DNA of 29,294 bases. Origin: a virus. A program made the translations under genes and the position numbers. The stretch lies in IMG/VR virus record IMGVR_UViG_3300040801_001321, positions 1-29,294 of that record; one strand, written 5' to 3'. Every line of letters starts with the position of its first letter. Positions within the stretch are counted from its first letter, which is position 1. The notes below the pieces were generated by a model. It worked only from the letters and a program-made list of their open reading frames with translations. It made no database searches and was not told the DNA's origin. Positions 16,050 through 26,626 of the stretch are shown piece after piece.

Positions 16050-16750
16050 TCGCTCGCCTCGTACTCGCGCCAGCGCTTGCAGATGTGTCGCATCTTCGAT
16101 GGCATGCCCTGCGTTCTACCGAGGCAGTAGTGCCGCAGCGTCGACTTGATGTGGACCGCCCGCGTGTGGTCGAGATTCAACCGCATCCAGTCTTCGTTAC
16201 AGGCGTTCCAGACGGCGCACGGGAACTCGTGGATCGCCGCGCCCGGCTCATTGTGCTCGACCATCCAGCCGAGCGACGCTTGATTCTGCCCCTTGTAGGC
16301 TTTCTTGTACGGATCGTGGAACTTCGAGTCGGCGTACATCTTCGCATCGATCTCGCCCCACTGCTTCACGAACGCGCGCGAGGTTCCGTTGACCTTCACG
16401 AATACGACGCCACCGTTGTAGGGCCAGTTCGTTGACGTACGTCGCGTGAGTCCGATGTCGAACTCTTCGTTGAACGCCGGAGCCATGTCGGCGAGCACCA
16501 TCATGTCGACGTCCATCAGGATGATGTGCTCGCCCCGGTCGGCCTCCTGAACGAACCGATTCCAGACCTTGAACTTCTCGTGATTGCTCGTCATGCCCTT
16601 GTTTCGCTTCGTCTCGGCGGGAGCTTTCATCCGCGCGATCGTGAGATCAGCGGTCGGGCAGTTGCGCCGCACACTCTTCTCGAAGACCGAGCAGAGCCGC
16701 GCGTAGTCGTCGCGCTCGCCGTAGTCGAACTGAACGCCAAGTATCTTCAT
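16046..16750 (-). CDS. Glycosyltransferase, GT8-like (GT-A)
   Basis: 234 residues. IILMDVDMMVLADM (76-89) contains the DVD metal-binding motif and NWPYNGGVVFVKVN (108-121) is the typical following strand-loop of GT8-like enzymes. Near the end LDHTRAVHIKS supplies a His-containing strand, as in the third conserved GT8 segment. Likely transfers a hexose to a glycan acceptor. The ATG overlaps the resolvase stop, so the glycan set is joined to the replication operon with no gap. Confidence 0.8.
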   Translation of the reverse strand: MKILGVQFDYGERDDYARLCSVFEKSVRRNCPTADLTIARMKAPAETKRNKGMTSNHEKFKVWNRFVQEADRGEHIILMDVDMMVLADMAPAFNEEFDIGLTRRTSTNWPYNGGVVFVKVNGTSRAFVKQWGEIDAKMYADSKFHDPYKKAYKGQNQASLGWMVEHNEPGAAIHEFPCAVWNACNEDWMRLNLDHTRAVHIKSTLRHYCLGRTQGMPSKMRHICKRWREYEASE

Positions 16751-17139
16751 CTTTCCCCCACAGCGAACAATTGTACCACGACTCGATCGGTAGAGTCGCG
16801 CTTGTGATAACGTCGGAGCACTGTCAAGTGTCGAATCTGCCGATCATCCTTGAGCACCCCGGCTGCTTCCAACGCATCCATGATCGCTTTGATCGGAGCG
16901 TCGGTGTCGAGCATCTTCCACATGCTGACTTCGAGCGTGCAGTCGACCGGGAAGTCGATCTTCGCGCGCGTGCGAGCAGCAGCGAACGCCGCCGCCATGT
17001 CGGAAAGGCCGCGCTTGTACTTCCCCGTGGTGAATAGGCGGGCTTTCTGACGCACCGACCGAGCGCCGAACTTCTCGTTCAGTCGCGGCAGTCGCCCATC
17101 GTATACGGCCTTGTAGAGCACGGCGGCGGCGTAGCTCAT
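16747..17139 (-). CDS. rusA: RusA-type Holliday junction resolvase
   Basis: 130 residues. GRLPRLNEKFG near the N-terminus and MLDTDAPIKAIMDALE followed by GVLKDDRQI carry the acidic residues (78, 80, 88, 98-99) that bind metal in RusA. It resolves branched recombination or replication intermediates before packaging. Two starts are possible: GTG at 17142 and ATG at 17139; the ATG gives a proper spacing (six) from GAGGA and forms TGATG with the preceding stop. Length matches E. coli RusA (120). Confidence 0.88.
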   Translation of the reverse strand: MSYAAAVLYKAVYDGRLPRLNEKFGARSVRQKARLFTTGKYKRGLSDMAAAFAAARTRAKIDFPVDCTLEVSMWKMLDTDAPIKAIMDALEAAGVLKDDRQIRHLTVLRRYHKRDSTDRVVVQLFAVGER

Positions 17140-17375
17140 CACTCGTCCTCGTCGAACAGATTGCCCCCTTCGGCTTCGTCATCGTCGCCGTAGGTCGGCC
17201 GAAAATCGAACTCGATGTCGGCTACGCGCTGAACGTTTTCAAAGAAACGCCCGGCAGCGTCGGTACCGTCGTGCGGTATCCGCACCTTGAGCTGAATCCC
17301 GCCGCCGGACGTGGTGAACGTCTCGACCTTCTGGATTTCGCCGACGACCTTGATCGTCTCTGCTTGCTTCGGCAT
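17139..17375 (-). CDS. Small acidic-tailed protein of unknown function
   Basis: 78 residues. The first 60 look like beta strands (IKVVGEIQKVETFTTSGGG, then IQLKVRIPHDG), and the last 15 are strongly acidic, ending NLFDEDE. The tail resembles the acidic tips that single-strand DNA-binding proteins use to recruit partners, but no OB-fold signature can be confirmed. GGAGG is four bases before the ATG. It joins the resolvase by a TGATG junction, so a role in replication or recombination is plausible. Confidence 0.65.
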   Translation of the reverse strand: MPKQAETIKVVGEIQKVETFTTSGGGIQLKVRIPHDGTDAAGRFFENVQRVADIEFDFRPTYGDDDEAEGGNLFDEDE

Positions 17376-17570
17376 AGTGCCTCCCTTTCCCTGAAACGAG
17401 TGTGCGGGGCGCCTCTGTGCGGCCAGAGAGTGCGCCCCGTACCGCCGCAGGGCCGCGCGCCGTGGTACGCCACCCGACGCACGCGCCCTGCCACCTCTTG
17501 TGGCGGTAGAAAGCTCGCCGCGCCCCGCGCGTGACCGGCAACGCCGGAATACGCGATCGCGCGACTTGCT
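17376..17570 (-). other. GC-rich non-coding stretch with several hairpins
   Basis: 195 bases with no credible gene between the tRNA-like element and the small acidic gene. On the minus strand it has a CCGGC-GTT-GCCGG hairpin (17535-17547), GCCAC-AAGAG-GTGGC (17490-17504) and a strong hairpin GGGGCGC...GCGCCCC (17406-17438) with an inner CTCTG/CAGAG helix. No T-run follows, so these are not plain terminators. Together with the adjacent tRNA-like element this may be a single structured RNA of about 270 nt. Confidence 0.5.
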
Positions 17571-17649
17571 GGAGACTGGCGGAGTTGAACCGCCGACGCC
17601 ACTCATGGGGGTGAGTTGTTGCGGCGTCCGAGCCGAGCCCCGAGTCCCC
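17570..17649 (-). ncRNA. tRNA-like RNA element (non-canonical, no anticodon arm of normal form)
   Basis: Seen directly: a seven-base-pair acceptor stem GGGGACT with AGTCTCC (one G-U), and next to it a perfect T-arm GGCGG-TTCAACT-CCGCC. Between them there is no normal D arm; a long helix GACGCC/GGCGTC plus ACTCA/TGAGT with a six-base bulge and a six-base loop CCCCCA replaces the anticodon arm. This layout (acceptor, unpaired D-like stretch, long helix, T-arm) is closer to the tRNA-like domain of tmRNA than to a tRNA. No CCA is encoded. The 5' end begins five bases after the stop codon of the upstream gene. Confidence 0.55.
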
Positions 17650-17654
17650 GGAAA

Positions 17655-18386
17655 TCATACGAATGGATCATCCTCGAAGTCGGATACGCCGACCTCGCTC
17701 ACGTGCTTCACTCCCGGCACGTTCGGTTTCGGCCTCTGGCTCTCTTCATGCCAGCGCTTCTCGTCTTCGCTCGCGATACCGCGATCGATACGCACCTGCC
17801 GGCGCGCGCGAGCCTTCTCGATTCCGTCGTTGATCATCGCAGCGAGGTCCATCGGCGGCGCTCCGGTCGCGAGTTCATCGCGCCATCCGAAGTTCAGATT
17901 GCCCGGCGGTCCGTCGTGCCATTTCCCGTTCGTTCGATAGCCCTGTCGCCATCCTTCGCCGACCAGCTCCCACTCAGCGCCGCATCCGGTCTTTCGATCA
18001 ATCCGATCATCGTAGTCGCCGAGGCAGATCGCCTCGGTCTTCGAAAACCGCTTCACCGGATGGCCGCAGAACGGACACGTATTCGGTAGCTGCCCGTCGT
18101 CCGGCCCCGGCAGCGCTTTCGTCTCGCTTCGATCTTCGAGCACGTCGGGCGGCGGTAGCTGTTTCTCCGCAGCCGCGAGCGCCGCCATGTCCGGCAGCGG
18201 TCGCATCTGCGTCGGCGTGAACGTCCGGGTCACCTCTTCGAACAGCGCCACCTTGTACGCGGGGCTGATCCACGCGTAGCTATCGGCGATGTCCTGCGCC
18301 ATTCGCGGCGCGTAGTGTCTCGGTGCGTGCGATCCGGGGCGATAGTGCTCGACGAACGCCTTGATCAAATCCTTCGCGTGATTCAT
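17655..18386 (-). CDS. Zinc-binding protein encoded next to the replication initiator
   Basis: 243 residues. The N-terminal 70 residues are helical (MNHAKDLIKAFVEHYRPG, then ISPAYKVALFEEVTRTF). A zinc site is suggested by CPFCGHPV near 104-111 followed by EAICLGDYDD and TGCGAEWELV. The gene starts in the stop codon of the winged-helix replication gene (ATGA), the position of lambda P or a DnaC-type helicase loader, but no Walker motif is present, so it is not a AAA+ loader. A helicase-recruiting or accessory replication role is inference from context only. Confidence 0.6.
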   Translation of the reverse strand: MNHAKDLIKAFVEHYRPGSHAPRHYAPRMAQDIADSYAWISPAYKVALFEEVTRTFTPTQMRPLPDMAALAAAEKQLPPPDVLEDRSETKALPGPDDGQLPNTCPFCGHPVKRFSKTEAICLGDYDDRIDRKTGCGAEWELVGEGWRQGYRTNGKWHDGPPGNLNFGWRDELATGAPPMDLAAMINDGIEKARARRQVRIDRGIASEDEKRWHEESQRPKPNVPGVKHVSEVGVSDFEDDPFV

Positions 18387-26090: not shown

Positions 26091-26129
26091 GTTCACCCCC
26101 AAGTGAATGTTCTCCGCTCTCGCGGGATA

Positions 26130-26174
26130 GCGTAGGCCGGGAGTCGAACCCGGCCGTGCGCTCCGGCGCTACGC
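26130..26174 (-). ncRNA. Mini tRNA-like RNA element (acceptor plus T-arm only)
   Basis: Acceptor strands GCGTAG and CTACGC give six base pairs; the T-arm CCGGG-TTCGACT-CCCGG has the exact canonical loop and its stem can extend to seven pairs. The D and anticodon arms are replaced by a 15-base stretch with a tiny CGC-CGGA-GCG hairpin. Total length is about 45 bases, no CCA is encoded. The 5' acceptor strand is formed by the last sense codon and TAG stop of the upstream gene, so the element begins exactly where that gene ends. Confidence 0.55.
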
Positions 26175-26483
26175 TCGTGCGTGATCTGGACTCGCAAGCC
26201 ACGCCAGCAGCCGCTGATACTCACAATTCACATAATCGACCTTATCGATCCCGTGCCCGTCGAGCACGTCCGGCAACTGCCGAAATATCGCCCCAACGAA
26301 CGCATTGTGCATCGCCGCCGGAGCAAGGTTCCGCATCGCGTAACCGCGACTGAACCCGCTCAAGGTGTCGACGTTGATCGCATACCGCTCGCCGTCGTCC
26401 TCGCGATTGACGTACACACGCATGTGAAACGGTCCCCCGCTGTGATCAATCACGATTTCGCTCATGTGCTGCCCGCTTCTCAT
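26169..26483 (-). CDS. Small hypothetical protein
   Basis: 104 residues. MSEIVIDHSGGPFHMRVYVN near the start suggests beta strands; AAMHNAFVGAIFRQLPDVLDG and CEYQRLLAWLASPDHARA are helical. The first ATG has GGGGG about six bases upstream; a second ATG six codons later is less well spaced. The stop codon forms part of the mini tRNA-like element. First clear gene of the leftward early operon. Function not recognised. Confidence 0.55.
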   Translation of the reverse strand: MRSGQHMSEIVIDHSGGPFHMRVYVNREDDGERYAINVDTLSGFSRGYAMRNLAPAAMHNAFVGAIFRQLPDVLDGHGIDKVDYVNCEYQRLLAWLASPDHARA

Positions 26484-26626
26484 TCTGAACCCCCAAAGTG
26501 TTTCACCCTCTTAGCGTTACCCGCCGACCGCCGCGTGGAGGCGGGGTGTTTTCGGTCGGCTCTCCGGGTTGCCCCGGTCGGGGTGGCTTCGGACTCCCCG
26601 GCTCTCGCCGTCCTCGTCCTATCCAT
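26480..26626 (-). CDS. Possible 48-residue basic leader protein
   Basis: An open frame (MDRTRTARAGESEATP to HFGGSE) that begins about 14 bases after the predicted transcription start and ends as ATGA with the next gene. AAAGGG lies too close to the ATG for a normal ribosome site. The same DNA can form a GCCGACCG/CGGTCGGC stem with an inner CCGC/GCGG helix (26523-26560), so it may be structured RNA instead. Arg-rich composition could arise by chance in GC-rich DNA. Confidence 0.25.
   Translation of the reverse strand: MDRTRTARAGESEATPTGATRRADRKHPASTRRSAGNAKRVKHFGGSE

What the first reader, a model, noticed from the sequence alone, without database searches (positions are those of the whole stretch)
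17570..17649. tRNA-like element with a tmRNA-like layout inside a phage operon
An acceptor stem (GGGGACT/AGTCTCC) and a perfect T-arm with loop TTCAACT are plainly present, but there is no true D arm and the anticodon arm is replaced by a long bulged helix. That plan resembles the tRNA-like domain of tmRNA, yet no tag-coding part exists. It starts five bases after a stop codon and lies inside a transcribed operon. It could be an RNase P/Z processing site, an RNA that recruits EF-Tu or host enzymes, a decoy, or the scar (attP) of integration into a tRNA or tmRNA gene.
Basis: partly seen in the sequence, partly recalled or inferred. Interest (0 to 1): 0.7.

Follow-up and report, generated by a model that had tools for sequence, protein, structure and literature searches.

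The report
Tag-less tmRNA-like RNA in a phage
A phage carries a small RNA shaped like the tRNA-like end of the bacterial ribosome-rescue RNA (tmRNA) but without the tag-coding part; it belongs with more than 130 similar, mostly unannotated phage RNAs found here, which probably jam or hijack the host's ribosome-rescue system.

Summary
The element is real. It lies on the MINUS strand, 17649 to 17570: a 7-bp acceptor stem, a 14-nt D region, a bulged helix in place of the anticodon arm, a perfect T-arm, and discriminator A. A phage (L002) sharing the neighbouring genes has the same RNA just after the same stop codon. Of 18 pairs, 9 are changed on both sides and none is broken; the G3-U70 wobble (the AlaRS and tmRNA identity signal) and A73 stay fixed. 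Two pattern scans of IMG/VR then turned up over 130 distinct compact, tag-less tmRNA-like RNAs of 59-86 nt in viral contigs, in two structural classes, with G3-U70 throughout and strong covariation. Some lie unannotated in cultured Streptomyces phages. A covariance model built only from the shorter class picks out the window element and its L002 homologue as the only significant hits in 44 kb (21.0 and 27.1 bits). One such RNA, from phage DS6A, is known in the literature, and a similar molecule inhibits E. coli tmRNA. Best reading: a divergent tag-less tmRNA mimic, probably a decoy that blocks trans-translation; not a tRNA, a working tmRNA or an attP scar. The class assignment is well supported; the function is inferred.

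The parts
17570..17649 (-). whole tag-less tmRNA-like RNA (80 nt, 5' end at 17649)
17643..17649 (-). acceptor stem, 5' strand GGGGACU (G3 at 17647)
   Evidence: covariation
17629..17642 (-). D region, 14 nt CGGGGCUCGGCUCG; no conserved stem; GG..UCG recalls the tmRNA D-loop
17595..17628 (-). P2-like bulged helix in place of the anticodon arm: GACGCC/GGCGUC, 5' bulge GCAACA, inner hairpin ACUCA-CCCCCA-UGAGU; no anticodon loop, no tag frame
   Evidence: 4 of 6 P2 pairs changed on both sides against L002
17578..17594 (-). T-arm GGCGG-UUCAACU-CCGCC
17570..17577 (-). acceptor stem, 3' strand AGUCUCC (U70 at 17573) plus discriminator A73; no encoded CCA (followed by GCA)
17376..17569 (-). rest of the about 280-nt non-coding gap; GC-rich hairpins, no sequence shared with L002 seen by eye
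17655..18386 (-). upstream gene (243 aa, unknown family), stop codon 5 nt before the RNA; homologue in L002 45-53% identical
17139..17375 (-). downstream gene (78 aa, unknown), 58% identical to the L002 counterpart; AGGGAGG before its ATG
16747..17142 (-). RusA-like Holliday junction resolvase, next gene; syntenic in L002

Best explanation
The element is a phage-encoded, tag-less tmRNA mimic: the tRNA-like domain of tmRNA closed by a short P2-like helix. Shown here: the conserved fold, covariation, fixed G3-U70 and A73, absence of anticodon and tag, and kinship in plan with a large family of phage mini-tmRNAs. Inferred: RNase P and 3' processing free it from the operon transcript, CCA is added, AlaRS charges it, EF-Tu and probably SmpB carry it, and it competes with host tmRNA for SmpB or for stalled ribosomes, which damps trans-translation (tagging and turnover) during infection.
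For: Fold and geometry. Syntenic homologue with 9 of 18 pairs changed on both sides, none broken, G3-U70 kept. Over 130 distinct compact tag-less tmRNA-like RNAs in viral contigs: 92 with an inner CCG-CANG-CGG hairpin and about 38 without it. G is opposite U70 in 92/92 and 24/24 although position 3 was not in those search patterns. Covariation scores 0.66 against 0.18 shuffled and 0.62 against 0.15. Model R2, built without the window or L002, hits L002's element at 27.1 bits (E 1.1e-5) and the window element at 21.0 bits (E 7.8e-4) as the only significant hits in 44 kb. Rfam tmRNA is the best of 4227 families for the window element. No SmpB and no full-length tmRNA in 38 viral records searched (37 with a mini form, plus the L002 contig), as expected if host SmpB is used. 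Precedent: phage DS6A TLD-only tmRNA; a similar molecule strongly inhibits tmRNA, perhaps by titrating SmpB (PMC4131195; PMC11915505).
Against: The window element is below Rfam's tmRNA threshold (16.1 against 47 bits) and is missed by model R1 with default filters (20.1 bits unfiltered). Its D region lacks the GGUUUCGAC motif of the main family, so SmpB binding is uncertain. It lacks the GAC/GAU linker before the T-arm. Canonical tRNAs can reach 20-29 bits with the same models, so the scores mark tRNA-superfamily likeness more than tmRNA identity. Only one syntenic homologue was found. No expression or charging data.
Confidence: 0.55

Rival explanations
1. A tRNA-like processing signal: RNase P and the tRNA 3' enzymes cut at its ends, separating the upstream mRNA from the downstream operon or setting mRNA ends; the excised RNA has no function of its own.
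For: It starts 5 nt after a stop codon, and the L002 homologue likewise starts just after the same gene's stop. A canonical acceptor/T-arm is all that RNase P needs (general knowledge).
Against: A processing site does not need G3-U70 or A73, which stay fixed while the rest of the acceptor stem is replaced. In the wider family only 9 of 72 elements start within 10 nt of a long ORF's stop.
Confidence: 0.2
2. An alanyl-RNA used for something other than blocking trans-translation, for example tag-free ribosome rescue as proposed for mitochondrial tmRNA, an Ala donor for a non-ribosomal ligase, or an AlaRS/EF-Tu sink.
For: Fixed AlaRS determinants; tag-less tmRNA is conserved in mitochondria together with SmpB (PMC11915505). 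The diverged D region of the window element suggests that SmpB contacts may be relaxed.
Against: No tRNA-dependent ligase was recognised among the window genes scanned; the only tested analogue behaves as an inhibitor of tmRNA.
Confidence: 0.13
3. A decayed phage tRNA or captured tmRNA fragment without function.
For: No anticodon, no tag, sub-threshold scores.
Against: Nine compensatory double changes, no broken pair, in a genome pair whose flanking proteins are only 42-58% identical. Decay would break stems.
Confidence: 0.07
4. attP core left by integration into a host tRNA or tmRNA gene.
For: Phage attP sites often carry the 3' part of tRNA/tmRNA genes (general knowledge). Xanthomonas phage Rb1 carries a tmRNA-like 3' end with a more distant 5' partner that may be such a case (not tested).
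Against: An attP core would carry only the 3' half, with no covarying 5' strand. No integrase found among the scanned window proteins, though the record may be incomplete. The host is unknown, so a match to its tRNA/tmRNA genes could not be sought.
Confidence: 0.03

Closest known systems
TLD-only tmRNA of mycobacteriophage DS6A ('standard, no CDS'; PMC4131195, PMC11915505, Mao et al. 2009)
   Same: Phage-borne, little more than the tmRNA tRNA-like domain, no tag
   Different: The DS6A sequence was not in the collections, so no direct alignment. The window element lacks a recognisable GGUUUCGAC D-loop and Rfam's tmRNA model does not accept it.
Phage mini-tmRNAs assembled here (models R1 and R2)
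   Same: 7-bp acceptor with fixed G3-U70 and A73, stemless D region, P2 in place of the anticodon arm, canonical T-arm, 59-86 nt, usually no encoded CCA
   Different: The window element has a 34-nt P2 region with a larger inner hairpin, no GAC/GAU linker, and a diverged D region. L002's is closer to the hairpin-less class.
Bacterial tmRNA (RF00023)
   Same: Acceptor with G3-U70 and A73, no D stem, T-loop UUCAACU
   Different: No mRNA-like domain, no pseudoknots, 80 nt against about 350 nt
Mitochondrial and Mallomonadaceae plastid CDS-less tmRNAs
   Same: Tag lost, tRNA-like domain kept (PMC11915505)
   Different: Organelle-borne; mitochondrial forms mostly permuted; presumed residual rescue role rather than a phage weapon

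Membership tests
TLD-only (tag-less) tmRNA, phage mini-tmRNA | 7-bp acceptor with G3-U70 wobble and A73 | tested here: met
   17647 G opposite 17573 U, A73 at 17570; conserved in L002
TLD-only (tag-less) tmRNA, phage mini-tmRNA | match to a covariance model of the family | tested here: inconclusive
   R2: 21.0 bits, E 7.8e-4, the only significant window hit. R1: missed with default filters, 20.1 bits unfiltered. tRNAs reach similar scores.
TLD-only (tag-less) tmRNA, phage mini-tmRNA | stemless D-loop with GGNUUCGAC | tested here: not met
   D region CGGGGCUCGGCUCGGAC resembles it only partly
TLD-only (tag-less) tmRNA, phage mini-tmRNA | short closed P2 helix in place of the anticodon arm, no tag frame | tested here: met
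TLD-only (tag-less) tmRNA, phage mini-tmRNA | charging by AlaRS, SmpB binding, inhibition of trans-translation | not testable with these tools
   needs biochemistry
tmRNA (RF00023) | score at or above gathering threshold (47 bits) | tested here: not met
   16.1 bits, though best of 4227 families
tmRNA (RF00023) | tag reading frame and pseudoknots | tested here: not met
   only 34 nt between D region and T-arm, folded as a bulged hairpin
tRNA | D arm, 7-nt anticodon loop, detection by ARAGORN | tested here: not met
   distal loop is 6 nt in both homologues
attP scar of a tRNA/tmRNA integration | identity to the 3' half of a host tRNA/tmRNA gene, with an integrase nearby | tested here: inconclusive
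   no integrase among scanned proteins; host unknown, so identity not testable; 5' acceptor strand co-varies

The most novel reading that the evidence does not exclude
Phages carry a large, almost unrecognised family of tag-less mini-tmRNAs (here over 130 distinct sequences in at least two structural classes) that act as RNA antagonists of bacterial trans-translation. The window element and L002 are a third, strongly diverged branch that keeps mainly the AlaRS/EF-Tu determinants.
Probability: 0.45. Interest if true: 0.85.

Novelty: new variant of a known kind. Interest (0 to 1): 0.7.

Why it matters
One tag-less phage tmRNA (DS6A) was on record, and the 2025 tmRNA database lists only nine 'standard, no CDS' sequences in all. 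If over 130 phage forms are real, phages repeatedly strip tmRNA to its tRNA-like domain and keep alanylation, which points to ribosome rescue as a common phage target. It can be tested directly, since Streptomyces phages with such RNAs are in culture and the known analogue already inhibits E. coli tmRNA.

Tried and rejected
BLASTN of the region against cultured phages: no match. Tblastn of the two flanking proteins in phages: none. Five gene-based scans of IMG/VR (upstream gene alone and aligned with L002, downstream gene, RusA, glycosyltransferase) returned only the L002 contig. L002's terminase is only 24% identical over a part, so the shared module sits in otherwise distinct phages. A second candidate T-arm/acceptor at 26128-26175 turned up in the R1 search (E 0.19), but it has an extra base between T-stem and acceptor and C3-G70; probably chance or a terminator, rejected as a second copy. 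Bacterial-genome pattern hits are mostly ordinary tRNA or tmRNA pieces or unpaired. A survey of 297 Actinomycetota genomes found none, but the tool scored only 15 candidates per genome, so this says little. DS6A could not be fetched. Mao et al. 2009 is not held and is cited through two papers that describe it.

Full report
OBSERVATION. The element reads on the minus strand: GGGGACU CGGGGCUCGGCUCG GACGCC GCAACA ACUCACCCCCAUGAGU GGCGUC GGCGG UUCAACU CCGCC AGUCUCC A, window 17649 down to 17570. It starts five bases after the stop codon of the upstream gene and lies at the head of a 280-nt gap before a small gene with its own Shine-Dalgarno-like sequence. It folds as a four-way junction at -37.2 kcal/mol (z -2.3). 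ARAGORN reports nothing. In first-order Markov shuffles of the window, a canonical T-arm joined to a 7-bp acceptor stem appears 0.0075 times per window.

HOMOLOGUE. One viral contig (L002, IMGVR_UViG_3300037504_000098) shares the upstream gene (45-53% identity), the downstream gene (58%), RusA (42%) and the following glycosyltransferase (55%) in the same order, although its terminase is barely related. Just after the upstream gene's stop codon it carries GGGCGGC GUGUCUGGAGAUCG GCGUGC ACGACA GCACGC G CGCGG UUCAAUU CCGCG GCCGUCC A. Of 18 equivalent pairs, 9 are changed on both sides, 9 are the same, none is broken and none is changed on one side only. No shuffle of the L002 letters out of 200,000 pairs all 18. 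The invariant pairs include G3-U70, and A73 is kept: the AlaRS identity signal that tmRNA shares with tRNA-Ala. The tip of the P2 helix and the D region vary. The element therefore is under selection as RNA.

A FAMILY. A degenerate pattern of the plan, scanned over IMG/VR and filtered for pairing, returned compact tmRNA-like RNAs with a tmRNA-like D-loop. A third scan with the tmRNA D-loop at short distance gave a hairpin-less class of 59-69 nt, about 38 distinct. Position 3 was free in the second and third patterns, yet it is G in 92 of 92 and 24 of 24, while pairs 4-69 to 7-66 vary with compensation. Covariation is far above both controls. Five cultured Streptomyces phages carry one: BRock, LuckySocke, GiJojo and Alone3 and pSt2308. 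It is unannotated in four, and in GiJojo it overlaps a hypothetical gene. In 60 of 87 cases there is no tRNA gene within 1 kb. 38 viral records (37 with a mini form, plus the L002 contig) contain no SmpB gene and no full-length tmRNA; the tmRNA hits are the mini forms themselves or tRNA pieces. Most of the mini forms examined pass Rfam's tmRNA threshold (27 of 38 records).

DOES THE WINDOW ELEMENT BELONG? Model R1 (inner-hairpin class) misses it with default filters and gives 20.1 bits unfiltered. Model R2 (hairpin-less class), built without the window or L002, finds exactly two significant elements in 44 kb: L002's (27.1 bits, E 1.1e-5) and the window's (21.0 bits, E 7.8e-4). Rfam's best family for the stretch is tmRNA at 16.1 bits (E 9e-5 for 306 nt), well below threshold. 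For L002's it is tRNA-Sec at 21 bits. Canonical tRNAs reach 20-29 bits with R1/R2, so these scores show tRNA-superfamily likeness; the plan (no anticodon arm, no D stem, G3-U70, A73, compact P2) is what favours tag-less tmRNA. I call it a diverged branch, not a proven member.

MECHANISM. Known (literature): the DS6A TLD-only tmRNA exists, and a similar molecule, chargeable or not, strongly inhibits tmRNA in E. coli, perhaps by titrating SmpB (PMC4131195; PMC11915505). Shown here: conserved fold and conserved alanine identity. Inferred: processing, CCA addition, charging, EF-Tu and SmpB binding, and competition with host tmRNA. Conservation of G3-U70 suggests that charging matters, for example for EF-Tu delivery to stalled ribosomes, even though an uncharged analogue also inhibits. 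The diverged D region of the window element makes its SmpB binding the weakest link.

ALTERNATIVES. A processing site explains the position but not the fixed alanine identity. An attP core does not explain a covarying 5' strand, and no integrase was seen. Decay is contradicted.

LIMITS. The family count is a lower bound from pattern scans that fix U70 and A73, so variants with other discriminators would be missed.

Noticed in passing
window 26501-26560 (-): HDV-like ribozyme match (RF02682 HDV-F-prausnitzii, 41 bits, gathering 44, E 1.7e-4, full model) just upstream of gene 26169-26483; all pairs shown are standard.
   Followed up: no
window 26128-26175 (-): Perfect T-arm-like hairpin CCGGG-UUCGACU-CCCGG flanked by 7-bp AGCGUAG/CUACGCU at the stop codon of gene 26169-26483; one extra base breaks tRNA geometry.
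   Followed up: partly
L002 608-700 (+): Two tandem similar hairpins (CUAUCCGUGCGUGACACGUG / CUAUUCGUGCGUGACACGUG cores) in the non-coding gap after the homologous RNA; not seen in the window.
   Followed up: no
L017, L045, L048: about 70 nt upstream of the mini-tmRNA: A further conserved, apparently structured stretch (GCCAGG...CCUGGCAGCG) lies directly upstream of the mini-tmRNA in three contigs.
   Followed up: no
L190 1501-1578 (BRock), L191, L192, L193, L316 601-678 (pSt2308): Mini-tmRNAs in tRNA-rich regions of cultured Streptomyces phages, unannotated except that in GiJojo one overlaps a 'hypothetical protein' gene.
   Followed up: yes
L315 565-630 (Pantoea phage Phynn): A compact RNA with a 30-bit R1 match and GGACACGGGUUCGAUUCCCGU is annotated as tRNA-Ser; may be a mini-tmRNA.
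   Followed up: partly
L085 142-209 (-) and a second contig of the same Patescibacteria MAG: Two hairpin-less mini-tmRNA-like RNAs (45.9 and 34.5 bits with R2) in one cellular MAG; phage-borne or a reduced host tmRNA is open.
   Followed up: partly
L312 578-629 and L317 578-629 (Enterococcus phage EfsSzw-1 and a gut phage): 52-nt T-arm/acceptor RNAs, R1 19-28 bits, unannotated; possibly even shorter tRNA-like RNAs.
   Followed up: no
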